The notes under the pieces are model-generated. The model was given only the letters and a program-made list of their open reading frames with translations. It had not been told where the DNA came from and searched no databases. A program made the position numbers and the translations under genes. From Bacteroidetes bacterium MED-G17 (GTDB lineage: Bacteria > Bacteroidota > Bacteroidia > NS11-12g > UBA9320), in contig NTKK01000008.1 of assembly GCA_002457675.1 (NCBI GenBank), positions 28,387 to 92,386 on the forward strand: 64,000 nt of DNA. The letters are read 5' to 3'. This document shows, piece after piece, positions 15,711-49,697 of the stretch. Numbering within the stretch: position 1 is the stretch's first letter; every line of letters begins with the position of its first letter.

Positions 15711-16796
15711 TTATTTCCGCATGGATTCATTTCTCTCAATCTTATGTTTTGGTCTTGTCCATCTCGGTTTTTCATCTAACGATTTTAAGTTGGACTCTTC
15801 TTTTTCTATTGTTTTAGGTTGCGCTTTTTTCACAAATGGTTTTTGGGGCTTCAAACCAAGTAAATCAAAAAGTTCTAAATCTTGGTGTATATCTGGGTTA
15901 GGTGTAGTTAATAACTTATCACCTGAAAATATTGAGTTAGCACCCGCAAAAAAACATAAGGCTTGACCTTCGTGGCTCATTTCTGTTCTACCTGCCGAAA
16001 GTCTCACCTGAGTTAGAGGCAAAACGATTCTAGTTGTAGCAATCATTCTTATCATTTCCCATATTGAAATAGTTTTTTGTTCTTGAAGTGGTGTTCCTTC
16101 TATTGCTACCAAAGCATTAATAGGAACAGACTCAGGTTGAGGGTTTAAAGTTGATAAGGCAACAAGCATTCCTGCCCTGTCCTCTACATCTTCACCCATT
16201 CCAATAATGCCTCCTGAGCAAACAGTAACATTGGTTTTCCTAACATTTTCAATGGTGTCAAGACGGTCTTGAAAAGCGCGGGTAGATATAACTTCTTTGT
16301 AATATTCTTCAGAAGAATCTAAATTGTGGTTGTATGCGTACAACCCAGCCTCTGCAAGTCGCTTGGCTTGATTTTCGGTAATCATACCCAATGTACAGCA
16401 AACTTCCATATCTAATTTATTGATAGTTCTAACCATCTCCAAAACTTGTTCAAACTCAGGCCCATCTTTCACATTTCTCCAAGCTGCACCCATACACACT
16501 CTTGAAGAACCCATTGATTTGGCTCGTTGAGCTTGTTCAGCAACTTGAGAAATGCTCATTAAGTCATTGCCTTCGATATCTGTATGATAACGGGCAGCTT
16601 GAGGGCAGTACGAACAATCCTCAGGGCAGCCACCCGTCTTGATAGAAAGTAGAGTGCTTACCTGAACTGTATTGGGATCATGATTTTTTCTATGAATTTG
16701 GGCTGCTTTGTAAAGCAAATCCATTAATGGTTCATTGTAAATTTTTAGAATCTCTTCCCTCGTCCAATTATTACGAATTTTATTCATGCCCTTCAC
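15711..16796 (-). CDS. bioB: Biotin synthase
   Basis: Radical SAM CPEDCSYCPQ, YNHNLDSSEEYY, RLSAGR, FFAGANSIFSG. Confidence 0.96.
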   Translation of the reverse strand: MKGMNKIRNNWTREEILKIYNEPLMDLLYKAAQIHRKNHDPNTVQVSTLLSIKTGGCPEDCSYCPQAARYHTDIEGNDLMSISQVAEQAQRAKSMGSSRVCMGAAWRNVKDGPEFEQVLEMVRTINKLDMEVCCTLGMITENQAKRLAEAGLYAYNHNLDSSEEYYKEVISTRAFQDRLDTIENVRKTNVTVCSGGIIGMGEDVEDRAGMLVALSTLNPQPESVPINALVAIEGTPLQEQKTISIWEMIRMIATTRIVLPLTQVRLSAGRTEMSHEGQALCFFAGANSIFSGDKLLTTPNPDIHQDLELFDLLGLKPQKPFVKKAQPKTIEKEESNLKSLDEKPRWTRPKHKIERNESMRK

Positions 16797-16812
16797 GAAA
16801 ATACGTTTTATT

Positions 16813-17958
16813 TTATTCAGCTTTTTGAATTAATAAACTTGCGGCGTTTCCGCCAAAGCCAACCGTATTAATTAAGATTTTTTTGATTTGCTTTGGTGCT
16901 TTGCTTGTTTTAATAAATGGTACTTCCACTACTTTATTGTTGTTTAACATATAAAGTGCGAGGTCAAGACTGTGCATTCCTGAGGCGCCTAAAGTATGTC
17001 CAATTTTCCATTTGTTTGATGTACAAAAAGGAACTTTGTTTTGGAATATTGATTTAATGGCCTTTTGCTCTGCCTTATCTCCGTTTATTGTACCTGGAGC
17101 ATGCATGATGATTGCATCAATAGACCCTAAGTTGTGATTTTCTGTTGCGCCTAACATAGCTTTTTGTAAGGAAATCCCATTTTTGCTAATGGAAACACTA
17201 TTTGAAATTTTTTCTGATCCGTACCCCCACCCTACAATATAACACAGGGCTTCATTCTTTCTACCTTTTTCAATACAAGCCACACCAGCACCTTCACCCA
17301 ATACCAAAGTATTTTCTTTTTTATCAAAATCCAAACTTCTGCACGGATAATCTACATCCATTTTACTATATATCTTTAGGGCTTTCATTTGAGCAATGGT
17401 AAATGGTGTTAAGGGTGCCTCTGTACCTCCCACCAAAAACTTTTCAACCATTCCAGATTTTATCCAAGCGATGCCGTTTAAAAAGGCATAAAAAGCGGAT
17501 GAACATGTAATGGAATGCGAAAACATTGGTCCTTGAGTACTTAAGTCTTGTGCGAGCCATGAAGAAATATTGCCAGCGGTGGTGCTTGGGGACGCTTGAA
17601 TATGGGTGATTTCAGATTGTAAAAAATCAGCATGATGTTCTTCTAATTTTTCTGTAGGGCCTCTAGAACAACCTATATTAATACCCATTATTTCGTTTTT
17701 ATTCCAATGTGCCATTTTCATAGCTTGCCTTGCAGCATGTATGGCATAGAGTGCAGTTTTATCTAAATGCTTATAAGATTGCTTATCTCGTAATTGGTCA
17801 ATTACTTTTTGAGTCTCTAGGGGAATTTTTCCTTGCCAAAATTCATCTAGCCTTGTTAAGGCATGCGATTTGCTATTGTAAGCATTTTGATTTTTTTCAT
17901 TTAAATGACCCAAAGCACTAATGGAAGAAAAACCTACTATGGATAATGGTTCATTCAT
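16813..17958 (-). CDS. Beta-ketoacyl synthase (KAS I/II-like) within the biotin operon
   Basis: Active-site CSSAFYAF, HAPGTINGD, KIGHTLGASG; probable start MNEPLSIVGFSSISALG at 17958 (ORF opens at 18000). Confidence 0.88.
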   Translation of the reverse strand: MNEPLSIVGFSSISALGHLNEKNQNAYNSKSHALTRLDEFWQGKIPLETQKVIDQLRDKQSYKHLDKTALYAIHAARQAMKMAHWNKNEIMGINIGCSRGPTEKLEEHHADFLQSEITHIQASPSTTAGNISSWLAQDLSTQGPMFSHSITCSSAFYAFLNGIAWIKSGMVEKFLVGGTEAPLTPFTIAQMKALKIYSKMDVDYPCRSLDFDKKENTLVLGEGAGVACIEKGRKNEALCYIVGWGYGSEKISNSVSISKNGISLQKAMLGATENHNLGSIDAIIMHAPGTINGDKAEQKAIKSIFQNKVPFCTSNKWKIGHTLGASGMHSLDLALYMLNNNKVVEVPFIKTSKAPKQIKKILINTVGFGGNAASLLIQKAE

Positions 17959-19231
17959 TTTTTTCACCAAACTTTTCAATACATTCAAGCGTTGTTTCAT
18001 AGACTTTTTCCATTTGCTTTTCTGAAGTAATAAACGGTGGTGTCAAATAGATGGTATTACCTAAGGGTCTAATAAAAACTCCTTTTTCCATGAAGAATTG
18101 AAAAATTTCATTTCTTTTTTTTCCATATCTATCTATTGGTGTATTAAGCTCAAAGGCCAAAATAACACCATTTGTTCTCTCATTCATCACTCTTTTATCA
18201 TGCATCAAGACCTTTAGAAAATTGTCATGACTTTTTTCAATTTTCAGCTTTCCATTTTCTATTATTTTACTTTGGTATAGATCAATGGCAGCAGAGGCAA
18301 CAGAGCATGCTATGGGATTTGCTGTGTAGGTATGTCCATGAAAAAATCCTTTGGCATTGTCCTCGCTTAAAAAAGCGGAAAATATTTTTTCTGTACATGT
18401 CGTTAATGCCATTGGAAGCATACCAGCAGTTAGTGCCTTAGATAGACAAATAATATCAGGAGAAATTGTAACCTGCTCAGAAGCGAATAAGGTATTCGTC
18501 TTTCCAAAGCCTGTCATTACTTCATCAGCTATTTTTAGAACATCATACTGTTTACAAAGTCGCAAAATCTGACAAAGATTTTTGGCTTCATGCATTTTCA
18601 TCCCTGCAGCCCCTTGAACCAAAGGTTCATATATAAATGCTGCTACATCTCCTTTATCTAAAATGTTTTTTAAGTGCTGCAATACTTGATCAATATTTTC
18701 TTCAGTAGGTACAGGTATTCTTTTGACTTCTATGAAAAAATCTTCAAAAGCACCATTATAAACTGATAAACCTGATACGGACATGGCGCCGAATGTATCT
18801 CCATGAAATCCTTCTTCAAAAGCAACAAATACTTTTCTTTTGTCTCCCTTGTTATGAAAATATTGGATGGCTATTTTTAAGGCAATATCAACCGCTGTAG
18901 AGCCATTTTCACTAAAAAAGACCCTGTTTTGACCATAGGGTAAAAGAGGAATGATTTTCTCGGTAAGTTTTACTGCAGGTTCATGTGTAAATCCTGCAAA
19001 AACTACTTGATCAAGTTGTCGCATTTGATGGTAAGCAGCTTCTATCAAAATTGGATGGCAATGTCCATAAACGGCAGTATACCAAGAAGATATCGCATCA
19101 ATATATATTTTACCTGACTCGTCGAATAGAAGCGTACCCTTTGCTTTTGTTATACCCAGTGCATCAGGGGTGTTGTTGTGCTGCGTGAGTGGGTGCCAAA
19201 TATGTTTTTTATCTCGCTGGCTTATAGGCAT
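17951..19231 (-). CDS. bioA: Adenosylmethionine-8-amino-7-oxononanoate transaminase
   Basis: HIWHPLTQ N-terminus, SSWYTAVYGHCHP, FSENGSTAVDIALKIA, DEVMTGFGKT, LSKALTAG. Confidence 0.95.
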   Translation of the reverse strand: MPISQRDKKHIWHPLTQHNNTPDALGITKAKGTLLFDESGKIYIDAISSWYTAVYGHCHPILIEAAYHQMRQLDQVVFAGFTHEPAVKLTEKIIPLLPYGQNRVFFSENGSTAVDIALKIAIQYFHNKGDKRKVFVAFEEGFHGDTFGAMSVSGLSVYNGAFEDFFIEVKRIPVPTEENIDQVLQHLKNILDKGDVAAFIYEPLVQGAAGMKMHEAKNLCQILRLCKQYDVLKIADEVMTGFGKTNTLFASEQVTISPDIICLSKALTAGMLPMALTTCTEKIFSAFLSEDNAKGFFHGHTYTANPIACSVASAAIDLYQSKIIENGKLKIEKSHDNFLKVLMHDKRVMNERTNGVILAFELNTPIDRYGKKRNEIFQFFMEKGVFIRPLGNTIYLTPPFITSEKQMEKVYETTLECIEKFGEKNE

Positions 19232-19851
19232 AAAAATGACCTTATAATTGGTTTGAATTTTTGCGCATAGATACCAATTATTTTTGCATCTATCGATTTA
19301 TATTGGTCAACTCTGCCCAATGATGGGAGCTGACCTTTTTCGCAAATTATCTCTTCGGTCGATTTATTTTCCTTGCCGTTAAAAACCAAAGCTATTTTGC
19401 TAAACCCACGTCCTTTAAGTGCCTCAATACTTAACAGGGTATGATTTATGCTTCCTAAATAATTCCTTGAAACCAATATCACCACATCGTCTTTATTAAT
19501 TAAATCAATAATGGTGTGTTTTTTGTTTAACGGTACCAAAAGCCCTCCAGCCCCCTCAATTACTAAATGGTTCTGAGTTTTTGGACGAATGATATCATGT
19601 ATTTTTATTTTTTTGTTTTCAAGATCTGCGGCTGCGTGCGGACTCATCGGGGCATTCAATGCATATGCATGCGGAAATACTGTCGTATTTTGATCACCGA
19701 TTAAATGGGCAACGGTATGGGCGTCAGTAAAATCTAAGTTTCCTGACTGTATAGGCTTCCAATAATCTGCTTTTAGCGCTTTAATAAAAATAGCAGAAAC
19801 CAAGGTTTTACCAACATCTGTAGAGATTCCTGTGATAAATATATTAGCCAA
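19222..19851 (-). CDS. bioD: Dethiobiotin synthase
   Basis: FITGISTDVGKT P-loop, YWKPIQSG, VIEGAGGLLVPL. Confidence 0.95.
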   Translation of the reverse strand: MANIFITGISTDVGKTLVSAIFIKALKADYWKPIQSGNLDFTDAHTVAHLIGDQNTTVFPHAYALNAPMSPHAAADLENKKIKIHDIIRPKTQNHLVIEGAGGLLVPLNKKHTIIDLINKDDVVILVSRNYLGSINHTLLSIEALKGRGFSKIALVFNGKENKSTEEIICEKGQLPSLGRVDQYKSIDAKIIGIYAQKFKPIIRSFLCL

Positions 19852-20998
19852 TTTTTGTCAATATTTCTTTAAGTTCTTTTAGAACGTTTTGAATTTGCTC
19901 AATGCTATTATAGCTGTGTAAACAAAATCGCAAACGCTCTTTGCCTTTTGGAACTGTCGGCGAAAGTATTGCTTTTACGTGATATCCCTTTATATACAAT
20001 TCATTGGAAACATTTTTAGCTTTAGTATTATCCGCAATAAGACAGGATTGTATGGCAGAATTACTTGAAAAAAAATATTCTTCTATCAAATATGTTGATT
20101 TGCAAAAGTTAAAATAATCAATTCTCTTTTTTAATTGATTTTGCAAGTTTGGGTTTGCTTCTAAAAACTGATAAGCCGAATATGCAACTGCAACAGAATG
20201 CGGACTAAGGGCTGTAGTATAAATCAAAGACCTAGCGAAATTAATTAAGTAATTTTTCAAAGATTTTGAACCCAAAATAACGGCACCATGGCAACCCAAA
20301 GATTTTCCAAAAGTCACTACTCTTGCAAAGAGCGAACCTTCGATGGCCATTGATCGAGAAAATCCTTGTCCCAGATCACCAAAAACGCCTGTAGAATGCG
20401 CCTCATCTAAAACCAAACGCAACCTATTTTCGGCACAAACCCTTGCTAATTTTTCCAAATTGGGGCTGTCCCCATCCATTGAAAAAACTGTCTCTGTTAC
20501 GACGTAGACTTCCTCAGATTTGTGTCTTATTTGAGCAGCTTTTTGTTTAAGATCATTTATGTCATTGTGCTTAAATTTAGAGCTTGAAGCTAAGCTCATT
20601 TTTATACCATCTCTTATCGATGCATGCACCAACTCATCGAAGAAAATATGGTCACCACGTTGTGGAACAGACGAAAAAAACCCCACATTGGCATCATATC
20701 CTGAATTAAATAATGTTGCAGAAGGAGACTGATGAAAAACAGATAAATATGTCTCAAATTTTTCATGAATTCTTTGATTGCCAGATAATAAGCGAGACCC
20801 AGTACTTCCATTGATGTTTTCTAGGTTACAAATTTTTTCGTAAGCATCTTCGTGAATTACTTTTTCCTTGGCCAAGCCTAAATAATCATTTGAGAAAAAA
20901 TCAACGACAGTTTCATTTGTTTGGGTTAAACTCCTCAAACTATTCTCAACTGACCTTTTCGTTAGTTTGTTTTGAAGTCGCTGGGAAATCTCCTGCAC
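19844..20998 (-). CDS. bioF: 8-amino-7-oxononanoate synthase
   Basis: FFSNDYLGLA, GSTGSRLLSGN, DEAHSTGVFG, TFGKSLGCHGA. Confidence 0.94.
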   Translation of the reverse strand: MQEISQRLQNKLTKRSVENSLRSLTQTNETVVDFFSNDYLGLAKEKVIHEDAYEKICNLENINGSTGSRLLSGNQRIHEKFETYLSVFHQSPSATLFNSGYDANVGFFSSVPQRGDHIFFDELVHASIRDGIKMSLASSSKFKHNDINDLKQKAAQIRHKSEEVYVVTETVFSMDGDSPNLEKLARVCAENRLRLVLDEAHSTGVFGDLGQGFSRSMAIEGSLFARVVTFGKSLGCHGAVILGSKSLKNYLINFARSLIYTTALSPHSVAVAYSAYQFLEANPNLQNQLKKRIDYFNFCKSTYLIEEYFFSSNSAIQSCLIADNTKAKNVSNELYIKGYHVKAILSPTVPKGKERLRFCLHSYNSIEQIQNVLKELKEILTKIG

Positions 20999-32098: not shown

Positions 32099-32563
32099 AT
32101 GATTGTTGTAAGAGAAGGGATAAAAGAGGATATCCAACAGGTCTTTGATTTAATTATGGAATTGGCCATTTTTGAAAAAGGCGAAGACGAAGTAATAAAC
32201 ACTCCTCAAAAAATGCTTCAAGAAGCATTTAGTAAGAAGCCTAATTTCGGATTTTTCGTAGCAGAAAAGAATGGAAAAATTGTAGGAACCTCCATATTCT
32301 ACGTGCGTTATTCTACTTGGAAAGGATCAACTTTATACTTAGAAGATTTGATTGTCACTGAAAGAGAAAGAGGAAAAGGCATTGGTGCTGAATTGTTCAA
32401 TAAAACCTTAGAACTGGCATCTAAAAAAGGATACCAAAGACTTAGTTGGCAAGTATTAAACTGGAATCAGCAGGCCATCGATTTTTACAAAAGTTTTGAC
32501 GCAACTTTTGATGAAGAATGGATAAATTGCCATTTGAATGTGGGAGTTAATCAAAAGTATTAA
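32099..32563 (+). CDS. GNAT family N-acetyltransferase
   Basis: LEDLIVTERERGKGIGAELF and WQVLNWNQQAIDFYKSF. Confidence 0.9.
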   Translation: MIVVREGIKEDIQQVFDLIMELAIFEKGEDEVINTPQKMLQEAFSKKPNFGFFVAEKNGKIVGTSIFYVRYSTWKGSTLYLEDLIVTERERGKGIGAELFNKTLELASKKGYQRLSWQVLNWNQQAIDFYKSFDATFDEEWINCHLNVGVNQKY

Positions 32564-33206
32564 GGAGTATCTCGTTTGGCCTTCTGCTATTATTGTTTTT
32601 TTATGGCTTGCCTTTTTTATCAATTTAAATTATCAATTCAACTGGAATGCCTACGGGATTCATCCCAGACAAATACATGGATTATTAGGCGTTGTTTTTT
32701 CTCCCTTCCTTCATGCAGATTTTGGGCATCTGTTTCACAACAGTATACCTTTTTTCATTTCCTTCAGCTTTATTTTCTTCTTCTATAAACAAAAATCATG
32801 GGCAATAGCACTTACAATATTTCTAGGTTCAGGTATTGGTGTTTGGCTATTTGGAAAATATTATTCTAATCATATTGGTGCTAGTGGTATTGTTTATGGT
32901 TTTGTTTCATTCTTAATATTTTCGGGATTCCTTCTAAAAAATAAAAAGATGTGGGCAATGTCCTTGTTAATGATTTTTCTGTATGGGAGTCTTATCTGGG
33001 GAATATTCCCTCAAATAAACATAATATCTGGCGCAAAAATTTCATGGGAAGGTCACGCTTGTGGAGCAATTACAGGATTTTTATCCGCTTTTTATTACAG
33101 AAAATATGGACCTCCAAGCGACCTCGACAATTATTTTGGAGATGAAGATGACCTCGAATACTTCAGCACAAAAACCTGGGTAGAGGATCAAACTGCAAAC
33201 CAGTAG
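32538..33206 (+). CDS. Rhomboid family intramembrane serine protease
   Basis: GASGIVYGF catalytic Ser motif, HLFHNSIPFF, GHACGAITGF catalytic His; overlaps GNAT gene by 26 nt. Confidence 0.88.
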   Translation: MWELIKSIKEYLVWPSAIIVFLWLAFFINLNYQFNWNAYGIHPRQIHGLLGVVFSPFLHADFGHLFHNSIPFFISFSFIFFFYKQKSWAIALTIFLGSGIGVWLFGKYYSNHIGASGIVYGFVSFLIFSGFLLKNKKMWAMSLLMIFLYGSLIWGIFPQINIISGAKISWEGHACGAITGFLSAFYYRKYGPPSDLDNYFGDEDDLEYFSTKTWVEDQTANQ

Positions 33207-33257: not shown

Positions 33258-35264
33258 ATGCGAAATCTTGTTCCATTTATTCTTATTAGCCTGCTTAATA
33301 CTTTTAATTCTTATGCCAAGGAAGGAGACACTTTAATTGTTCGTTCTCATGACTTGGTAGACATGACTTGGAATGGCAATTACGATCGAAAAGCTTTTTT
33401 TCCAACCAAAGGAAAAACTTTTCAGAAAGTATTAATGAAGTATACGCTCGGGTGTGCTAGCACAGGTTGTTCAGATTGGGATTACGATGTAAATATTTAT
33501 TTGTTGAAAGATCTAGGTTATAGAGATTCAAATGTTAAATCCTATGACACCATATCAACCAATCCAGTGATAGTAGATACTGTCTGGAATGTTTTTGATG
33601 CAAGAGAACCATTTGAATTGGGTCGTTACATCACCCCTTATGGAACTTACATGGCAAGAAATAGCCTAGGTTTTAACAATGACTGGAACCACACCTTCTA
33701 TTATGATGTTAGTGAATTTGTCGGATTATTTAAAGATTCTGTGACCATTAGATCAAACTATCGAGGTTGGTCTTCTGGATTTAGTGCTACTACAGATTTT
33801 ATTTTTATTGAAGGAACTCCACCAAAAAATGTTCTGGCCGTAAAAAATATCTATTTAAGAGGCGGTGGATACCAAAGCTCTGAAGAATTTGAGAAAAATG
33901 TAACTCCTGAAAAAAAGATTTTCATAAATAAAAGAACGAAACATGCTAGGGCCAAGGTAATCGTTACTGGTCATGGTTTTGACAACAATACACAATGTGC
34001 CGAGTTTTGCCAAAAAAGTTATGATCTTATAGTAAACAAAGAAAAAGTTGGAAGCCACCTTATGTGGAGAAATGACTGTGGCAAGAATCCGGTTAGACCG
34101 CAAGGAGGAACTTGGCTCTACGATCGTGGCAATTGGTGCCCGGGAGATAAAGTTTTTCCAGAATTTTATGATGTTAGTTCAAAAATTAACCCAGGTGATA
34201 CCAATATTTTCAATATCGATTTAGAGGCATATACTTGGTCGGGCAACCAAAGACCAAGCTACAATCTTTCTACCGTTTTGTTTGAGTATGGAGCGTACAA
34301 TTTTGACCTTGATGCAAGAGTTTTGGAAGTATTGAAGCCCTCAGATCGAGATGAATTTATGCATTGGAATCCATCCTGCGATAGACCTATATGTATTATT
34401 CAAAATGCAGGAAGACAGCGCATCACATCAGCTGTTATCAAATACGGATTCGAAGGTCTTGAACCCTCCTATTTTGAATATACCGGAGATTTAGCTAGCA
34501 TGCAAAAAGATACAGTTTCTTTACCCATACCAAAATGGGAAAATGAAGATGAAGGTGTTTTTTATGTTGAAATTACGTTACCCAACAAAAGTTACCAAGA
34601 CGAAAACCTAAGCAACAATAAGTTGATAAGCAAAGTAAAAATTGCTCCACGTTTAGAGCCCTTCAGAATTTGGTTACGAACCAATGGTCGTGTCCAAGAA
34701 AACAAGCTGGTCATCCTAAATAGCAATCAAGAAGAAGTATATCAATTGGATAATCTTATGCCCAATACGATGTATAGAGAGGATGTAAATCTTCCAGATG
34801 GTTGCTATACATTACTTTTAACAGATGAAGGGAAAGATGGACTCGATTGGTGGGTTTATCAAAACAATGGAATTACAGCCGCTACCGGTGGTTGGATGAG
34901 AATTCAACCTCAATCAGGTGGAGGTTTTATTGAAAACTGGGGAGGTGACTGGGGTACTGAGATTAGATACTCATTCATCTATGGAAACTACGAAGGTGAG
35001 CATCAAACAATCGAACCAAAAAATTTATTGATTTTTCCAAACCCATCAAAAGATTTAGTTAAAATACAGATTCCAGCTATTGATGAGAAAATTACCATCA
35101 GTATTTTTAACTCTTTAGGACAGAAAGTAAAAGAGAATTCAAACATCCCAAGCGACAGAGCCTATTGGCATAACATGCATTTGGAAGATCTTGGAAGTGG
35201 TACTTTTATTATCAAAGTTGAATCAGCTACTTTGAACGAAACCAAAAAAATATTTGTAGAGTAA
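33258..35264 (+). CDS. Secreted PNGase F-like (peptide-N-glycosidase F-related) protein with T9SS type A sorting domain
   Basis: GCSDWDYDVNIYLL, GRYITPYG, KHARAKVIVTGHGFDNNTQCAEFCQKSYDL, WLYDRGNWCPGDKV collinear with PNGase F landmarks; C-terminal FPNPSKDLVKIQ...GTFIIKVES. Confidence 0.82.
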   Translation: MRNLVPFILISLLNTFNSYAKEGDTLIVRSHDLVDMTWNGNYDRKAFFPTKGKTFQKVLMKYTLGCASTGCSDWDYDVNIYLLKDLGYRDSNVKSYDTISTNPVIVDTVWNVFDAREPFELGRYITPYGTYMARNSLGFNNDWNHTFYYDVSEFVGLFKDSVTIRSNYRGWSSGFSATTDFIFIEGTPPKNVLAVKNIYLRGGGYQSSEEFEKNVTPEKKIFINKRTKHARAKVIVTGHGFDNNTQCAEFCQKSYDLIVNKEKVGSHLMWRNDCGKNPVRPQGGTWLYDRGNWCPGDKVFPEFYDVSSKINPGDTNIFNIDLEAYTWSGNQRPSYNLSTVLFEYGAYNFDLDARVLEVLKPSDRDEFMHWNPSCDRPICIIQNAGRQRITSAVIKYGFEGLEPSYFEYTGDLASMQKDTVSLPIPKWENEDEGVFYVEITLPNKSYQDENLSNNKLISKVKIAPRLEPFRIWLRTNGRVQENKLVILNSNQEEVYQLDNLMPNTMYREDVNLPDGCYTLLLTDEGKDGLDWWVYQNNGITAATGGWMRIQPQSGGGFIENWGGDWGTEIRYSFIYGNYEGEHQTIEPKNLLIFPNPSKDLVKIQIPAIDEKITISIFNSLGQKVKENSNIPSDRAYWHNMHLEDLGSGTFIIKVESATLNETKKIFVE

Positions 35265-35312: not shown

Positions 35313-36974
35313 ATGTCACATCCACTTTTCAAGAAACATCAAGCACTGCTTGACCAAGCCATAATTGCTTTAAAAGAGCGAAAATTTTTCACACCATATC
35401 CAGAGCATCCTAAGGCATATGAAGAATGGGGAAATGAAGAAGGAAAAGCGAGCTTTTCGAAAAAATTAAACACAAACTACCTTGGAGTTGCTGAAGGAAA
35501 TTCAGATTGGATTGGTGAAGAGATATCACCCTATTGGCAAACTGGGTTGGGTATTCAATATCCGAAAGAAAATCCTCAAGAAGTCATAAATAAAGCAAAA
35601 TCTGCCTTTGAAATATGGAAGAATACATCTATTAAATCTAGAGCTGGTATACTAATTGAAAGTCTAGAAAGAGTTAAATCTCGTTTTTTCGAATTGGCTT
35701 ATGCAACCATGCATACCACTGGTCAAAGCTTTTTAATGTCTTTTCAAGCAAGTGGTCCACACGCAAACGACCGCGCCTTAGAGGCTATAGCAAAAGGGTA
35801 TGAAGAGCTCTTAGAATACCCCGAAGAACTTACTTGGACGAAACCAATGGGTAAATTTGATCTTGCACTTAAAAAAACATTTAAACCAGTACCAAAAGGT
35901 ATTGGTTTGGTTATTGGATGTTCAACTTTCCCAACTTGGAACACAGTACCTGGATTATTTGCTAACTTAATGACAGGTAATGTTTCCATAGTTAAACCTC
36001 ATCCAAAAGCAATTATGCCAATTGCCATTTTAATAGAAGAATTAAGAAATGTTTGTAAAGAAAATAAACTACCAGAAGATATAGTTCAACTTGCTGTTGA
36101 TACGGTAAAAGAACCCATTACCAAAATTTACGCAGAACATTCTGAAATAAAACTAATTGATTATACTGGAAGTTCGTCATTTGGCGACTATCTAGAAGGA
36201 CTGCAAAAAACTTGTTTTACAGAAAAATCAGGTGTCAACTCTATTATTTTGGAGAGTGCACAAGATTTAAAATCTACCTGTCAAAATATTGCATTTTCCG
36301 CAAGTTTATATTCTGGTCAAATGTGCACTGCACCTCAAAATATTTTTGTTCCAGAAACAGGTATCGAAACCAAGGAAGGAAAAATGAATTTTGAAGAAGT
36401 ACTTAGTACTTTGACCCAAAGTATGGAAAATTTAGTAACCCATCCAAAAATGGGACCGGGCACCCTCGGGGCTATCCAAAATGACAACACCTTGGTAAAT
36501 ATTGACGCGCAAGGGGACTTTGGCGGAAAAGTAATTTTAGAACAGCTAAATATTAGCAATCCTGAGTTTGCCTCGGCCAGAATAGCTAGTCCAAAGATTG
36601 TAGTTTTAAACGCAACACAAGCTACATATCAAGAAGAATTTTTTGGCCCAGTCCTGTTTGTTATTAAGTGTAAAAATAAACTGGAGGCACTTCAAAAAAT
36701 AAAAGAACTAGCAGAATCTAAGGGAGCAATTACTTGCTCTGCTTATACGCTAGATGAGGCTTTTGAAAAAAAGATAGAAGAAGAAATGAATAGCGTTTTC
36801 ACCCCAGTTAGTTTTAACTTTTCTGGACCCGCATTTATCAATCAACATGCTGCCTTTTCTGATTTTCACGTTACTGGTGGAAACCCAGCTGGTAATGCAA
36901 GTTTTACCAACTCAAATTTTATAAATAGACGTTTTGTATGGGTAGGAAATAGATATATGCCTAATACCCTTTAG
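35313..36974 (+). CDS. Phenylacetic acid degradation protein PaaN-like (aldehyde dehydrogenase family)
   Basis: MSHPLFKKHQALLDQAI...RKFFTPYPEHPKAYEEWG N-terminus; ALDH core with SLYSGQMCTAPQNIF. Confidence 0.8.
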   Translation: MSHPLFKKHQALLDQAIIALKERKFFTPYPEHPKAYEEWGNEEGKASFSKKLNTNYLGVAEGNSDWIGEEISPYWQTGLGIQYPKENPQEVINKAKSAFEIWKNTSIKSRAGILIESLERVKSRFFELAYATMHTTGQSFLMSFQASGPHANDRALEAIAKGYEELLEYPEELTWTKPMGKFDLALKKTFKPVPKGIGLVIGCSTFPTWNTVPGLFANLMTGNVSIVKPHPKAIMPIAILIEELRNVCKENKLPEDIVQLAVDTVKEPITKIYAEHSEIKLIDYTGSSSFGDYLEGLQKTCFTEKSGVNSIILESAQDLKSTCQNIAFSASLYSGQMCTAPQNIFVPETGIETKEGKMNFEEVLSTLTQSMENLVTHPKMGPGTLGAIQNDNTLVNIDAQGDFGGKVILEQLNISNPEFASARIASPKIVVLNATQATYQEEFFGPVLFVIKCKNKLEALQKIKELAESKGAITCSAYTLDEAFEKKIEEEMNSVFTPVSFNFSGPAFINQHAAFSDFHVTGGNPAGNASFTNSNFINRRFVWVGNRYMPNTL

Positions 36975-43970: not shown

Positions 43971-44954
43971 TTAAAAGTCTGGACAACTAATTGGTCTGAA
44001 TCTTCGAGTAGGTTTTCGCGCACACCAACCAACACTTGCTGATATTTCGTGTGAACCCGGTGCCGCTGCACGAGCGCTTGATACCGTTAAATCAAAAGAA
44101 TAGCCAAACTTAAATTGGTCTTTTCTAAAACCTACCAATACCATTGCAGCATCAGAATTTTTAAAATCTCCAAAAGTTTGTCTATACCAAAGACCGGTAA
44201 CCAAAGGGCCTCGATTAATATAAAATCCTGCATTTAATTGCGAAAATTGATCTTGCATCATAAAAAGAATATTCGGTGAGAAAGTAGCTTTGGCAACTCG
44301 TCTTTTATCCAATGGGACAACCATACCTCCATGGGCAGTATATCTTCTTGGCAAATTACTCTCAGGATCTCCGTAAAAAGACTGATTCGGCTCGATTGCG
44401 TTATGTGCAGCAAAACCAAAATAAAAGTCTTTAGTGTAGCCTACAACCCCCGCATTAAAATTTGGTGTTAGTATGTTGGTTGAAGTCAATTGTTCAGCAG
44501 AAGATTTTACAAAACCGCGCGTTTCGTCAATCATATCTTCAAACAAAAGCTTACTCTTATCTACACTTCTTTGGATAATTTGCGCTTCAATACCAAATCT
44601 CATAGTGAATTTGCGCGTAACATTGAGCTGATATGAATAAATCCCACTAAACTGGTAGGTTTTCAACAAACCTTCACCTGCAACATCCCTAAGCGCCACG
44701 AAGCCAAGACCACCGCCGATGGCATTTACATGTTGGTCGAAACTTGCAACTGTAGTAATATAGGCTCCTGGTAAATTGGGCCATTGATTTCTTTGATTCA
44801 AGGAAACCCGTCCACCACCATTACACTCTCCCGTACCAGCTAGGGAGGGGTTTGTGTACAATGGAGACGCATAAAATTGAGACAATTCCGGATCTTGTGC
44901 TTTAACCGTTATTACTAGAAGAACTAAAAGTCCAAATAATGTGTACCGATTCAT
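43971..44954 (-). CDS. PorP/SprF family T9SS membrane protein
   Basis: QDPELSQFYASPLYTNPSLAG signature, beta-barrel; start MNRYTLFGLL at 44954 preferred (ORF opens at 45050). Confidence 0.88.
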   Translation of the reverse strand: MNRYTLFGLLVLLVITVKAQDPELSQFYASPLYTNPSLAGTGECNGGGRVSLNQRNQWPNLPGAYITTVASFDQHVNAIGGGLGFVALRDVAGEGLLKTYQFSGIYSYQLNVTRKFTMRFGIEAQIIQRSVDKSKLLFEDMIDETRGFVKSSAEQLTSTNILTPNFNAGVVGYTKDFYFGFAAHNAIEPNQSFYGDPESNLPRRYTAHGGMVVPLDKRRVAKATFSPNILFMMQDQFSQLNAGFYINRGPLVTGLWYRQTFGDFKNSDAAMVLVGFRKDQFKFGYSFDLTVSSARAAAPGSHEISASVGWCARKPTRRFRPISCPDF

Positions 44955-45093
44955 TCTGAATTTTTGTTGCACCTTTTGTGTCATTCTTAAAAAGAACGTG
45001 AAAATACAAAAAACATGATTGATATTTTTATTTTTTTCAAAAATACACACTATTTTAGTTTCAAATCTGTTATTAGAATAGCCATTAAGGAAA

Positions 45094-48000
45094 ATGATTT
45101 ATATCAAAAAAATTAGGCCAGTGGTCTTAGCCCTTTTTTTTATTTTCTTTTACGCATTGAATTCTTTTGCTCAGAAGTCCCCGTTAAGCAGTGGTACATG
45201 GCATAAAATTTCAATCATTGAGGATGGAATATATAACTTGACTCCTTTGCTAATCGAACAATTTGGTGATGGTATTGAACTGAATAAAATTCAACTTTAT
45301 GGCAATGGAAAAGGGATGTTGTCTGAAGTTATTGCCGAAGCAGATAAATCAATTTTAACCGAAATACCTTTGTTAGAAATTGATAAAAATCAAAATGGCT
45401 TATTGGATGGAAATGACCAAGTTTTATTTTTTGGCTTAGGCCCTCACCAATGGAATTATGATTCAACCAATCAAGATTTTACCCATGAATACAATATTTA
45501 CAGAAACGAAAATTTTTATTTCTTTACACACGGTTTAAAAAATGGCAAACGCTTGCAAAATGTTGGAAATGGCGCTCAATTGAACCCTACTAGAAAAATC
45601 CACAAGCATAAGTTCCTTGTCTTCCATGAGCAAGACGAAGTAAATGTTGCCAAATCTGGTAGAATGTGGGTTGGAGACGAAATAAATTCAAATCGACCAA
45701 AAATATTCACTTTCGATATCAACAATTTGGTTAAAGAGGATACAATATTTTTCCGTTCAAAAATTTGGGTTAGATCTTTAGTAGAGAGTAGCTACAGCTT
45801 GAAAATTAATGGTCTAACTAAAAGCCAAAAAATGGTTTATAAAATTCCTGGATCGAAAGACAATATCCAAGCACAAATTAACACTGAAAATCATTCTTTT
45901 AAAAGCAAGGATAACCAAATTGAAGTTAGTTACACTTATTCAATTCCAGATATTGCTTCAAGAGCATGGATAGACTACATAGAGCTTGTTGCAAGCCGTA
46001 ATAATATTTTAACTGCTGAGCAAGAAGTTTTCTTATTCCCTACGAAAACCAATTCAGAGGATATCACTATTTCATTTCAAAATTTAGCCAATGAAGATGT
46101 GAATGTTTGGGATATAACTGACTTTAATTCACCAAAAGTTCAATCTTTTTTGAATGGCACTTTTGATTTTAATGTTTCAAATACCAAGCCATTGAGGAAA
46201 TACATTTCATTCTCTAACCCACGCCAAGCTGAGTATGTTGGAAAAATTGAGAATCAAAACCTCATTAGTATTTCCGCTACAGACTACCTAATGATTTACC
46301 ACCCAAATTTCAAAACTGAAACCGAACGTTTGGCTGAATTTCACAGAAACCAATATGCTTATGATGTTAAATGTATCAACATCTTCAATATTTATAATGA
46401 ATTTTCTTCTGGTGGACAAGATGTTGTGGCCATTAGAAATTTTATTAAATCAGTTTATGATAAAGGTGCCGCCGAGGCCAAACCATTAAGATATGTTCTA
46501 TTCATGGGTGATGCAAGCTACGATTTTAAGGAGCGACTTGATGGCAATACTAATTTTGTTCCCAGCTATCAAAGTATAAACTCCATAGATCCAATAGCCT
46601 CTTATCCAAGCGATGATTTTTTTGCAATCCTAGAGGATGATGAAGGTTACTGGGGTTTTCAAAATGTTGCTGAATCTCTTGATATAGGTGTAGGTAGATT
46701 CCCTGTAAAGACAGCAATTGAAGCCAAAACCGTGGTGGATAAAATTATTCATTACCATCAATCAGAAACCTTTGGTAAATGGCGAAATAATATTGTGTTT
46801 TTAGGGGATGACGAGGATGGTAACAAATTTTTTAACGACGTAGAAAATTTTTCCAATGAAATTTATCAAAAACATCCTGAAATCAATGTGCAAAAAATCT
46901 ACCTAGACGCTTACCCTCAAGTGTCTTTTGGAAGCGGAAATAAATACCCTGAAGTAAATGATGCCGTAAACAGGTCCATAGAGCAAGGCACTTTGATTTT
47001 TAATTATATTGGGCATGGAGGTGGCAATGGTATGGCGCACGAAAGGGTAGTAACAAGAGCACAAATCAACGAATGGAAAAATTATGACAAACTTCCATTG
47101 TTTGTAACAGCGACTTGTGAACTTTCGCAACATGACGACCCTGCACAAGTATCTCCTGGTGAATTAATATTACTCAATCCCAATGGAGGAGCAATTGGAC
47201 TAATTACCACATCTAGAGTTGTTACGTTAACCGTTAACCGAAACCTTAACGACAAAATTTATCGAGACAATATTTTCGCAAAGAAGGATGGAGAGAGACC
47301 TTCGCTCGGCGATGTTTTCATGAAAATAAAGAACAACAGTTTTAGAGCAGTAAATCAACGGAATTTCATCCTTTTAGGCGATCCGGGCATGCAATTAGCC
47401 TACCCCAAAAAAAATGTTTTCATCACCCATGTTAATGGCCAAAAAGTAGAAGAGTTCAAAGATACCATTGGCGCCTTAGGCAAGGTATCTATTGAAGGTA
47501 TTGTTGCAGATAATGATAGCATAATGATTAGCAATTATGATGGTACTCTTAATGCCACAGTATATGATAAGTTTCAGACCTTCCAAACATTAGGCAATGA
47601 CCCAGGCAGCAAGATTGATGCATTTTCATTACAAAATAGCAGCATATACAATGGTAGAACAGAGATACAAGATGGTAAATTTAAATTTAGCTTTATTGTA
47701 CCAAAAGACATCTCATATCAATTTGGCAAAGGCAAAATATCCCTCTATGCCTTCAATACAGAAGAGGATGCAAATGGTTTTGAGAATCAAATTGTTGTTG
47801 GTGGGTCATCTGATGAATCAATTTTTGACACCATGGGCCCGCAAGTGCGGCTATTCCTTAATGATTCGACTTGGAAAAATGGAGGCTTCACAAATCCAAA
47901 TCCTACTTTACTAGCAGATATTTATGATATAAACGGAATAAACACGGTTGGAAGTGGCATTGGGAAAGATATAGTAGCTATTCTAGACAAGAATACAGAA

Positions 48001-48495
48001 CATGAGCAACTTTTTATTCTTAATGATTACTACCGAGCCAATTTAAACAGCTACCAAAGTGGGAAAATAAAATTTCCTTTAAGTGAAATAGCAGAAGGAG
48101 AACATACCATACATCTCAAAGTTTGGGATGTATCTAACAACTCGTTTGAAACAAAAACCAATTTTGTTGTAGGTGCTGAAGATAAACTCGAAATTGCCCA
48201 TGTCAAAAATTTCCCCAATCCATTTAGCACTTCGACTCAAATACAATTTGAACATAATCAAGCAGGAAAATGGATAGAAGTAGATTATCAAATTTATTCC
48301 ATTGCTGGAAAAAAAGTATTTAATACAAAAAAGACATTTGAAATAGCACCAACAAGAGTTGTATCTATTCTATGGGAAGGCCAAAATAATAACGAACAAA
48401 CTTTAGAAAGTGGTACTTACTTCTGTCGTATTTTTGTGAAAGATAAATACAACCGAATTACTCAAAAAACCCTAAAACTGATAATCTTACGTTAA
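45094..48495 (+). CDS. porU: T9SS sortase PorU (C25 gingipain-like cysteine peptidase)
   Basis: YIGHGGGNGMAHE (His), FVTATCELSQHDDP (Cys); adjacent porV; C-terminal FPNPFSTSTQIQFEH domain. Confidence 0.92.
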   Translation: MIYIKKIRPVVLALFFIFFYALNSFAQKSPLSSGTWHKISIIEDGIYNLTPLLIEQFGDGIELNKIQLYGNGKGMLSEVIAEADKSILTEIPLLEIDKNQNGLLDGNDQVLFFGLGPHQWNYDSTNQDFTHEYNIYRNENFYFFTHGLKNGKRLQNVGNGAQLNPTRKIHKHKFLVFHEQDEVNVAKSGRMWVGDEINSNRPKIFTFDINNLVKEDTIFFRSKIWVRSLVESSYSLKINGLTKSQKMVYKIPGSKDNIQAQINTENHSFKSKDNQIEVSYTYSIPDIASRAWIDYIELVASRNNILTAEQEVFLFPTKTNSEDITISFQNLANEDVNVWDITDFNSPKVQSFLNGTFDFNVSNTKPLRKYISFSNPRQAEYVGKIENQNLISISATDYLMIYHPNFKTETERLAEFHRNQYAYDVKCINIFNIYNEFSSGGQDVVAIRNFIKSVYDKGAAEAKPLRYVLFMGDASYDFKERLDGNTNFVPSYQSINSIDPIASYPSDDFFAILEDDEGYWGFQNVAESLDIGVGRFPVKTAIEAKTVVDKIIHYHQSETFGKWRNNIVFLGDDEDGNKFFNDVENFSNEIYQKHPEINVQKIYLDAYPQVSFGSGNKYPEVNDAVNRSIEQGTLIFNYIGHGGGNGMAHERVVTRAQINEWKNYDKLPLFVTATCELSQHDDPAQVSPGELILLNPNGGAIGLITTSRVVTLTVNRNLNDKIYRDNIFAKKDGERPSLGDVFMKIKNNSFRAVNQRNFILLGDPGMQLAYPKKNVFITHVNGQKVEEFKDTIGALGKVSIEGIVADNDSIMISNYDGTLNATVYDKFQTFQTLGNDPGSKIDAFSLQNSSIYNGRTEIQDGKFKFSFIVPKDISYQFGKGKISLYAFNTEEDANGFENQIVVGGSSDESIFDTMGPQVRLFLNDSTWKNGGFTNPNPTLLADIYDINGINTVGSGIGKDIVAILDKNTEHEQLFILNDYYRANLNSYQSGKIKFPLSEIAEGEHTIHLKVWDVSNNSFETKTNFVVGAEDKLEIAHVKNFPNPFSTSTQIQFEHNQAGKWIEVDYQIYSIAGKKVFNTKKTFEIAPTRVVSILWEGQNNNEQTLESGTYFCRIFVKDKYNRITQKTLKLIILR

Positions 48496-48524: not shown

Positions 48525-49697
48525 ATGAGAAATATTTGTTCATCTCTATTCGCTTCTGTAATAATCCTTGGTTTAACTTTCAACTTAGTCCAAGCTCAAG
48601 TTACGTCTAAGGATCAATTGTTAGGCCAACGAAACGTCGTCACGACATCCGTACCCTTTTTAACTATAGCTCCAGACGCACGATCGGCAGCCTTAGGTGA
48701 AGCTGGGGTAGCTTTAAAGCCGGATGCCAACGGAGCCTATTGGAATGCAGCTAAAATGGCTTTTATAGAAAGTGATGCAGGAATTTCTATATCAGCAACA
48801 CCATGGCTTAGAGAGCTTGTTCCAGATGTTTGGATCTATTATCTCTCGGGATACAAAAGAATTGGGGAGAAACAAAGGAGCACCCTGTCAGGTTCTATTC
48901 GCCATTTTACCCTCGGTGAAATACAATTTACGGACCAAGTTGGAAGTAGTTTGGGAAATTATGAGCCATATGAAACTGCCATTAGTGGTAATTATGCAAC
49001 CCAACTCTCGAAGCAATTCTCTGTAGGAGTTGGCCTTCGATTTATTGTATCAGACTTAGCCAAAGGTCAATATAGTGGCAATCAAGAGATAAAACCAGGA
49101 ATAGCAGGCTCCGGCGATATTGGCGTTTATTATAAAAATGAAATTGACTTAGGGGGGCGAGAATGGCAAATAGCTCTTGGAGGAAATATTTCCAACCTGG
49201 GCTCCAAAATTTCTTACACAACAAAAGCGGAAAGAGATTATATACCAACAAGCTTAAGATTGGGAGCCGCATTCACTAATATAATTGACGATTACAACTC
49301 TATCACCTTTTTGGTAGACATTAATAAACTTCTTGTTCCAACCCCACAATGGGATGATAGCACACAAAGATATTATCGGAAAGATGTGAATGTCTTGCAA
49401 GGTGTTTTTCAGTCCGTGGGTGATGCCCCAGGGGGCTTTCAAGAAGAGCTAAATGAATTAATGTATTCGGTAGGATTTGAATATTGGTATGACAAACAAT
49501 TTGCCCTGAGAGCAGGCTATTTCAATGAGCATAAAAATAAAGGAGGGCGTAACTTTGGAACAATTGGTGCAGGTCTTAAAATGAATAAAATTGGTGTTGA
49601 CGCAGCTTATTTAATTCCACTAGCACAAAGGCATCCTCTTCAGGGCACCATTCGTTTCTCCGTCGCAGTCGATTTAGGCGTAATATCAACTGATTAA
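48525..49697 (+). CDS. porV: T9SS outer membrane channel protein PorV
   Basis: TSVPFLTIAPDARSAALGEAGVAL, PDANGAYWNAAKMAF; directly downstream of porU. Confidence 0.93.
   Translation: MRNICSSLFASVIILGLTFNLVQAQVTSKDQLLGQRNVVTTSVPFLTIAPDARSAALGEAGVALKPDANGAYWNAAKMAFIESDAGISISATPWLRELVPDVWIYYLSGYKRIGEKQRSTLSGSIRHFTLGEIQFTDQVGSSLGNYEPYETAISGNYATQLSKQFSVGVGLRFIVSDLAKGQYSGNQEIKPGIAGSGDIGVYYKNEIDLGGREWQIALGGNISNLGSKISYTTKAERDYIPTSLRLGAAFTNIIDDYNSITFLVDINKLLVPTPQWDDSTQRYYRKDVNVLQGVFQSVGDAPGGFQEELNELMYSVGFEYWYDKQFALRAGYFNEHKNKGGRNFGTIGAGLKMNKIGVDAAYLIPLAQRHPLQGTIRFSVAVDLGVISTD

What the first reader, a model, noticed from the sequence alone, without database searches (positions are those of the whole stretch)
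33258..35264. T9SS-exported PNGase F-like amidase
Seen: GCSDWDYDVNIYLL, GRYITPYG, QCAEFCQKSYDL and DRGNWCPGD occur in the same order as in PNGase F (compare CDEWDRYANVYV, GRFITPYW, GCAEWCFRTH, DRAGWCPGM, recalled from the Elizabethkingia enzyme). The acidic residues in the D-W-D and C-A-E contexts, which I recall as catalytic, appear conserved. Unlike classical PNGase F, this protein carries long extra regions and a C-terminal type A sorting domain. Inference: a surface-attached or secreted N-glycan amidase from a free-living bacterium, with a divergent substrate range.
Basis: partly seen in the sequence, partly recalled or inferred. Interest (0 to 1): 0.62.

Follow-up and report, generated by a model that had tools for sequence, protein, structure and literature searches.

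The report
Secreted sugar-stripping enzyme (PNGase F relative)
The gene encodes a secreted bacterial enzyme of the well-known PNGase F family, which cuts N-linked sugar chains off proteins; the family is known and relatives with the same export signal have already been shown to be active, so it is ordinary in kind, but this small-genome bacterium keeps it without the usual enzymes for eating the released sugars.

Summary
The finding is right. The ORF at 33258-35264 (+) is intact (668 aa): signal-peptide-like start, PNGase F double jelly roll (about residues 24-347), two accessory beta modules, and a type A T9SS sorting domain (592-667). N-glycanase_C is far above Pfam's cut-off (80.8 v 25 bits). 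N-glycanase_N alone is below it (17.6 v 22.4), but a profile of 25 relatives aligns across both jelly rolls of PNGase F (1pnf, E = 1e-39), and the AlphaFold model's best PDB match is 1pnf (E = 4e-18, TM 0.79 over the target). The residues shown to be essential in PNGase F and zebrafish Ngly2 (D60, E206) are D75 and E249; E249 is kept in 110 of 110 loci, D75 in 82 of the 84 with a residue aligned. E118 is not kept (R169); published work ties that site to core-fucose specificity. T9SS-exported PNGases with extra modules (PNGaseL, PNGaseDo) are published, so this is a new member of a known kind. Less expected: PF09113 occurs in 59 of 65 genomes of the order against 66 of 393 in the phylum sample, and this 1.67 Mb genome has it as an orphan, without GH92, GH38, GH20 or GH29. 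Activity and substrate are untested.

The parts
33258..35264 (+). PNGase F superfamily amidase gene, 668 aa, the only PF09113 gene of this genome
33258..33317 (+). signal-peptide-like N-terminus (residues 1-20: basic start, hydrophobic helix, SYA then KEG)
   Evidence: sequence read directly; helix 4-19 in the model; no signal-peptide program was run
33327..33812 (+). first jelly roll (N-glycanase_N-like, residues 24-185); carries catalytic D75 (33480-33482)
   Evidence: PF09112 sub-threshold; profile to 1pnf E = 1e-39 covers it; strands in model
33510..33608 (+). loop 85-117 with an insertion shared by the nearest relatives and absent from the 650-aa forms of the sister family; low confidence in the model (pLDDT < 50 at 90-115)
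   Evidence: alignment A1
33762..33764 (+). R169, at the position of PNGase F E118 (core-fucose discrimination site)
   Evidence: PMC9522356
33825..34298 (+). second jelly roll (N-glycanase_C, residues 190-347); carries H239 (33972-33974), catalytic E249 (34002-34004), R290 (34125-34127)
   Evidence: PF09113 80.8 bits
34311..34637 (+). accessory beta module 1 (residues about 352-460); one relative gives a weak CARDB hit
34653..34988 (+). accessory beta module 2 (residues about 466-577), with nearly invariant C516 and a DGLxWW-type motif
35031..35258 (+). T9SS type A C-terminal sorting domain (residues 592-667)
   Evidence: PF18962 and TIGR04183 above cut-off
45094..48495 (+). PorU, T9SS sortase of the same genome
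   Evidence: NF033707, 1184.6 bits, cut-off 420
48525..49697 (+). PorV, T9SS outer-membrane protein
   Evidence: NF033710, 460 bits, cut-off 250
43971..45050 (-). PorP/SprF-family T9SS membrane protein
   Evidence: TIGR03519, 223 bits, cut-off 90.6

Best explanation
[quoted passage not shown] It is made with a Sec signal, carried across the outer membrane by T9SS, trimmed by PorU, and anchored or released at the surface. There D75 and E249 (D60 and E206 of PNGase F) hydrolyse the bond between Asn and the first GlcNAc of N-glycoproteins or glycopeptides from eukaryotes such as algae, leaving Asp in the peptide and a freed glycan. Family membership, catalytic residues and the sorting domain are shown here. 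Export, activity and substrate are inferred. Because this genome lacks the tested N-glycan exoglycosidases, the gain is probably access to the stripped protein rather than growth on mannose-rich glycan; this last step is the weakest.
For: PF09113 at 80.8 bits, cut-off 25. Profile of 25 relatives to PNGase F over both jelly rolls, E = 1.1e-39, with D60 and E206 aligned to invariant D and E. AF2 model pLDDT 78, pTM 0.74; the top 18 PDB matches are all PNGases or putative PNGase-type hydrolases, best 1pnf E = 4e-18, TM 0.79 of target. E249, C274, R290, W293, C294, G296 in 110 of 110 loci; D75 in 82 of 84 with a residue aligned. D and E are essential in zebrafish Ngly2 (PMC12753239), which matches this protein at E = 3.5e-10. 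The three features described as common to PNGases (aromatic-D-aromatic/positive, His plus Glu, Trp/Tyr platform) are present as W74-D75-Y76, H239/E249 and W171 (PMC12381499). T9SS tail plus PorU, PorV, PorP in the same genome. No GH92, GH20, GH38 or GH29; the one SusD sits in a GH16/GH3 laminarin-type locus.
Against: No assay. E118 of PNGase F is replaced by Arg. PF09112 alone is below cut-off. The gene is not in a glycan-use cluster (neighbours: rhomboid, GNAT, PaaN-like dehydrogenase, urocanate hydratase). Other mannosidase families (GH125, GH130, GH76, GH99, GH2) were not searched, so absence of glycan use is not proven.
Confidence: 0.88

Rival explanations
1. It is an active PNGase serving an ordinary N-glycan feeding pathway whose later enzymes lie elsewhere in the genome, in families not searched here, or in partner bacteria.
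For: Published bacterial PNGases are usually read as nutrient enzymes and most of those tested were orphan genes (PMC12381499); 45 of 65 genomes of the order do have GH92.
Against: This genome lacks GH92, GH20, GH38, GH29 and has one SusD, in a GH16/GH3 locus. The only GH18 lies near a tail-sheath gene cluster. The six genomes checked for both and with a verified close ortholog (G000, G005, G016, G024, G028, G030) all lack GH92.
Confidence: 0.35
2. It has lost amidase activity and works as a surface glycan-binding or adhesion protein on the PNGase fold.
For: E118 is lost; two extra beta modules; other relatives carry long forms with a lectin-type Laminin_G_3 domain inserted near the active site.
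Against: D75, E249, H239, R290 and most disulphide cysteines are kept across very divergent relatives, which binding alone would not demand; Ngly2 and type II PNGases also lack E118 and are active.
Confidence: 0.08
3. It acts on a different amide or glycosylamine, for example an unusual algal or bacterial N-linked glycan, not the standard eukaryotic chitobiose core.
For: Position 118 is variable in this group and the 85-117 loop that follows the catalytic strand is lengthened; near-universal in its order, unlike a niche catabolic enzyme.
Against: Residues at the positions that hold the chitobiose (W74, H239, W171) are kept.
Confidence: 0.12

Closest known systems
PNGase F (type I), Elizabethkingia meningoseptica, PDB 1pnf/1pgs
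   Same: Double jelly roll, D60/E206 = D75/E249, the disulphide cysteine pairs aligned, R248 = R290, GR(F/Y)ITPY motif
   Different: 21% identity in the structural match; E118 replaced by R169; a His (H239) where PNGase F has Trp; two extra beta modules and a T9SS tail
PNGaseDo (Draconibacterium orientale) and PNGaseL (Flavobacterium akiainvivens), PMC12381499
   Same: PNGase F superfamily, accessory beta modules after the catalytic domain, T9SS signal
Zebrafish Ngly2 acid PNGase, PDB 9lwg, PMC12753239
   Same: GHG..D....C.EFC and GTWLY.RG.WC.G motifs; same Asp/Glu pair proven essential; no Glu at the 118 site
   Different: Ngly2 has thioredoxin-like and PA domains before the catalytic domain and is lysosomal
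PNGF-II and B. massiliensis PNGase (type II, PDB 4r4x, 7zgn)
   Same: Superfamily and fold; no Glu at the 118 site
   Different: Type II enzymes have an N-terminal bowl-like domain and Gly at the 118 site; neither is seen here

Membership tests
PNGase F superfamily (IPR015197 / PF09113) | N-glycanase_C match over curated cut-off | tested here: met
   80.8 bits v 25; all 25 relatives match
PNGase F superfamily (IPR015197 / PF09113) | N-glycanase_N match over curated cut-off (PF09112) | tested here: inconclusive
   17.6 bits v 22.4 for this protein; 15 of 25 relatives match at E <= 0.01; family profile aligns through this half of 1pnf
PNGase F superfamily (IPR015197 / PF09113) | Two side-by-side jelly rolls superposing on PNGase F | tested here: met
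   Foldseek 1pnf E = 4.1e-18, TM 0.79 of target
PNGase F superfamily (IPR015197 / PF09113) | Catalytic Asp60 and Glu206 | tested here: met
   D75 and E249, invariant in A1; alignment to 1pnf; 110-locus count
PNGase F superfamily (IPR015197 / PF09113) | Amidase activity on Asn-linked GlcNAc | not testable with these tools
   needs expression and assay
Type I PNGase F (Glu/Asp at position 118) | Acid at the E118 position | tested here: not met
   R169
Type II PNGase (PNGF-II-like) | N-terminal bowl-like domain and Gly at the E118 position | tested here: not met
   catalytic fold starts at about residue 24; R169 not Gly, though a one-residue shift against G170 cannot be wholly excluded
T9SS type A cargo | C-terminal Por_Secre_tail/TIGR04183 domain over cut-off | tested here: met
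T9SS type A cargo | T9SS machinery in the genome | tested here: met
   PorU, PorV, PorP in the window
T9SS type A cargo | Actual export and processing | not testable with these tools
   needs cell fractionation

The most novel reading that the evidence does not exclude
In this order of Bacteroidota a surface PNGase is a near-core, mostly single-copy gene, and in the window's lineage it is kept without the tested N-glycan-degrading glycosidases. There it would serve to unlock algal glycoproteins for peptide use (or another surface role) rather than to feed on the glycans, with a core-sugar specificity set by a non-acidic residue at site 118.
Probability: 0.35. Interest if true: 0.5.

Novelty: new member of a known kind. 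Interest (0 to 1): 0.3.

Why it matters
It places an intact PNGase in a small-genome (1.67 Mb) bacterium and shows that the family is close to universal in its order (59 of 65 genomes, against 66 of 393 in the phylum sample). That raises a testable question about what bacteria that may not use the freed glycan gain from deglycosylation. The R169 substitution and lengthened loop make it a candidate for different core-fucose tolerance, of practical use in glycobiology.

Tried and rejected
Rejected: pseudogene or chance motifs (one open frame, strong HMM scores). Rejected: PHM-type copper monooxygenase on a similar fold (no such Pfam hit and no PHM among the 50 structure matches listed; PNGase structures fill the top ranks). 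Considered and set aside: membership of a glycan-use cluster; neighbours are unrelated, and of those tested only the PaaN-like dehydrogenase next door is kept beside the PNGase, in L002 and L003/L034. Looking up E118 in papers changed the reading: it is a specificity site that differs between active PNGases, so its loss does not refute activity. No sequence of PNGaseL or PNGaseDo was available for a tree. A paper search for type II PNGases failed on a term error and was not repeated.

Full report
Observation. The reading frame at 33258-35264 (+) is intact and 668 aa long. All four quoted motifs are present in the stated order. Pfam gives N-glycanase_C 80.8 bits (cut-off 25) at residues 217-341, Por_Secre_tail 44.4 bits (cut-off 27) at 592-667, and N-glycanase_N 17.6 bits, below its cut-off of 22.4. 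NCBIfam confirms the T9SS type A tail. By sequence alone, the best solved structures are PNGase F (1pnf, E = 1.6e-12) and zebrafish Ngly2 (9lwg, E = 3.5e-10), followed by the Bacteroides PNGases.

Both halves of the fold. A profile from 25 full or near-full relatives (A1) aligns with PNGase F over profile positions 22-320 at E = 1.1e-39 and also reaches PNGF-II and the B. massiliensis enzyme. The AlphaFold2 model (mean pLDDT 78.2, pTM 0.74) has an N-terminal helix, the double jelly roll, two further beta modules and the sorting domain. Its top 18 PDB matches are all PNGases or putative PNGase-type hydrolases, led by 1pnf (E = 4.1e-18, TM 0.79 normalised by the target). The sub-threshold N-terminal Pfam hit is therefore divergence, not absence.

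Catalytic residues. D75 and E249 align with D60 and E206 of PNGase F. Across 110 loci, E249, C274, R290, W293, C294 and G296 are invariant. D75 is Asp in 82 of 84 sequences with a residue aligned there; the other 26 have no residue aligned at that column, being fragments or long forms in which the first jelly roll is interrupted. The same Asp and Glu were shown by mutation to be essential in Ngly2 (PMC12753239). The three common features of PNGases listed in PMC12381499 are met: W74-D75-Y76, H239 with E249, and aromatic W171.

The E118 site. PNGase F E118 aligns with R169 here and the site is variable in the group: T, S, N, W, D, G and others (part of this spread probably reflects misalignment in forms lacking this loop). 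Published work says E118 blocks core alpha-1,3-fucose in type I enzymes and is Gly in type II (PMC9522356). The active Ngly2 also has no Glu at this place in the alignment. Loss of E118 therefore argues for altered specificity, not for inactivity. What R169 does is unknown.

Export. The sorting domain is above both curated cut-offs and the window also encodes PorU, PorV and a PorP/SprF-family protein, so T9SS export is well supported though not shown.

Distribution. The gene is single-copy in its genome (1,668,018 bases, 99% complete). PF09113 is found in 59 of 65 genomes of the order (58 of 64 of good quality) and in 66 of 393 of an even phylum sample (66 of 390 of good quality); Fisher p about 2e-31 on the good-quality genomes, with the caution that genomes in one order are not independent. 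The close form (about 42-48% identity over the full length) was found only in part of the same family. Named relatives are mostly uncultured Bacteroidota.

Genome context. The gene is an orphan; the neighbours are a GNAT, a rhomboid, a PaaN-like dehydrogenase and urocanate hydratase. The PaaN-like gene stays next to it in two other genera. In this genome GH92, GH20, GH38 and GH29 were not found. The single SusD lies in a locus with two GH16, a GH3 and a SusC-like protein, which looks like laminarin use. The single GH18 lies a few genes from a phage-sheath-like protein. Among genomes of the order, 45 of 65 have GH92, but none of the six tested genomes with a verified close ortholog does (G000, G005, G016, G024, G028, G030). 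The Fisher test used seven, counting G058 by ORF length only; treat it as indicative. The reading that this lineage strips glycoproteins without eating the glycans is inference; several mannosidase families were not searched.

Comparison. PMC12381499 already describes PNGaseL and PNGaseDo with T9SS signals and accessory beta modules among six assayed superfamily members. This is a new, divergent member of a known kind.

Side result. In many relatives of about 1150 aa, the loop between the strand bearing the catalytic Asp and the GRFITPYG motif holds an insert of about 450-500 residues with a Laminin_G_3 lectin-like domain. The window's protein has a short insertion in the same loop. This loop is thus a site of domain insertion close in sequence to the catalytic Asp.

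Noticed in passing
L084:8063-11629, L097:8132-11647, L111:8054-11617: Long PNGase forms with the first jelly roll interrupted by a roughly 450-500-residue insert that includes a Laminin_G_3 domain, between the catalytic Asp strand and the GRFITPYG motif.
   Followed up: partly
L112:5664-12431 (own genome, contig C10): A GH18-domain protein with C-terminal hydrophobic segments lies a few genes upstream of a phage-tail-sheath-like protein and small tube-like proteins: looks like a contractile injection system cluster.
   Followed up: no
L113:5591-17855 (own genome, contig C11): Compact SusC/SusD locus with a PKD-type lipoprotein, two GH16, one GH3 and a sodium/solute-symporter-like protein, laminarin-type; the only SusD found in this genome.
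   Followed up: partly
window 35313-36974: PaaN-like aldehyde dehydrogenase (TIGR02288 just above cut-off, 587 v 579 bits) stays directly downstream of the PNGase in two other genera.
   Followed up: partly
window 15711-20998: Run of genes on the minus strand that read by eye as a biotin synthesis cluster (BioB, ketoacyl synthase, BioA, BioD, BioF).
   Followed up: no
window 32538-33206: Rhomboid-like membrane protein with a sub-threshold rhombosortase match (44 bits, cut-off 84) immediately upstream of the T9SS cargo gene.
   Followed up: no
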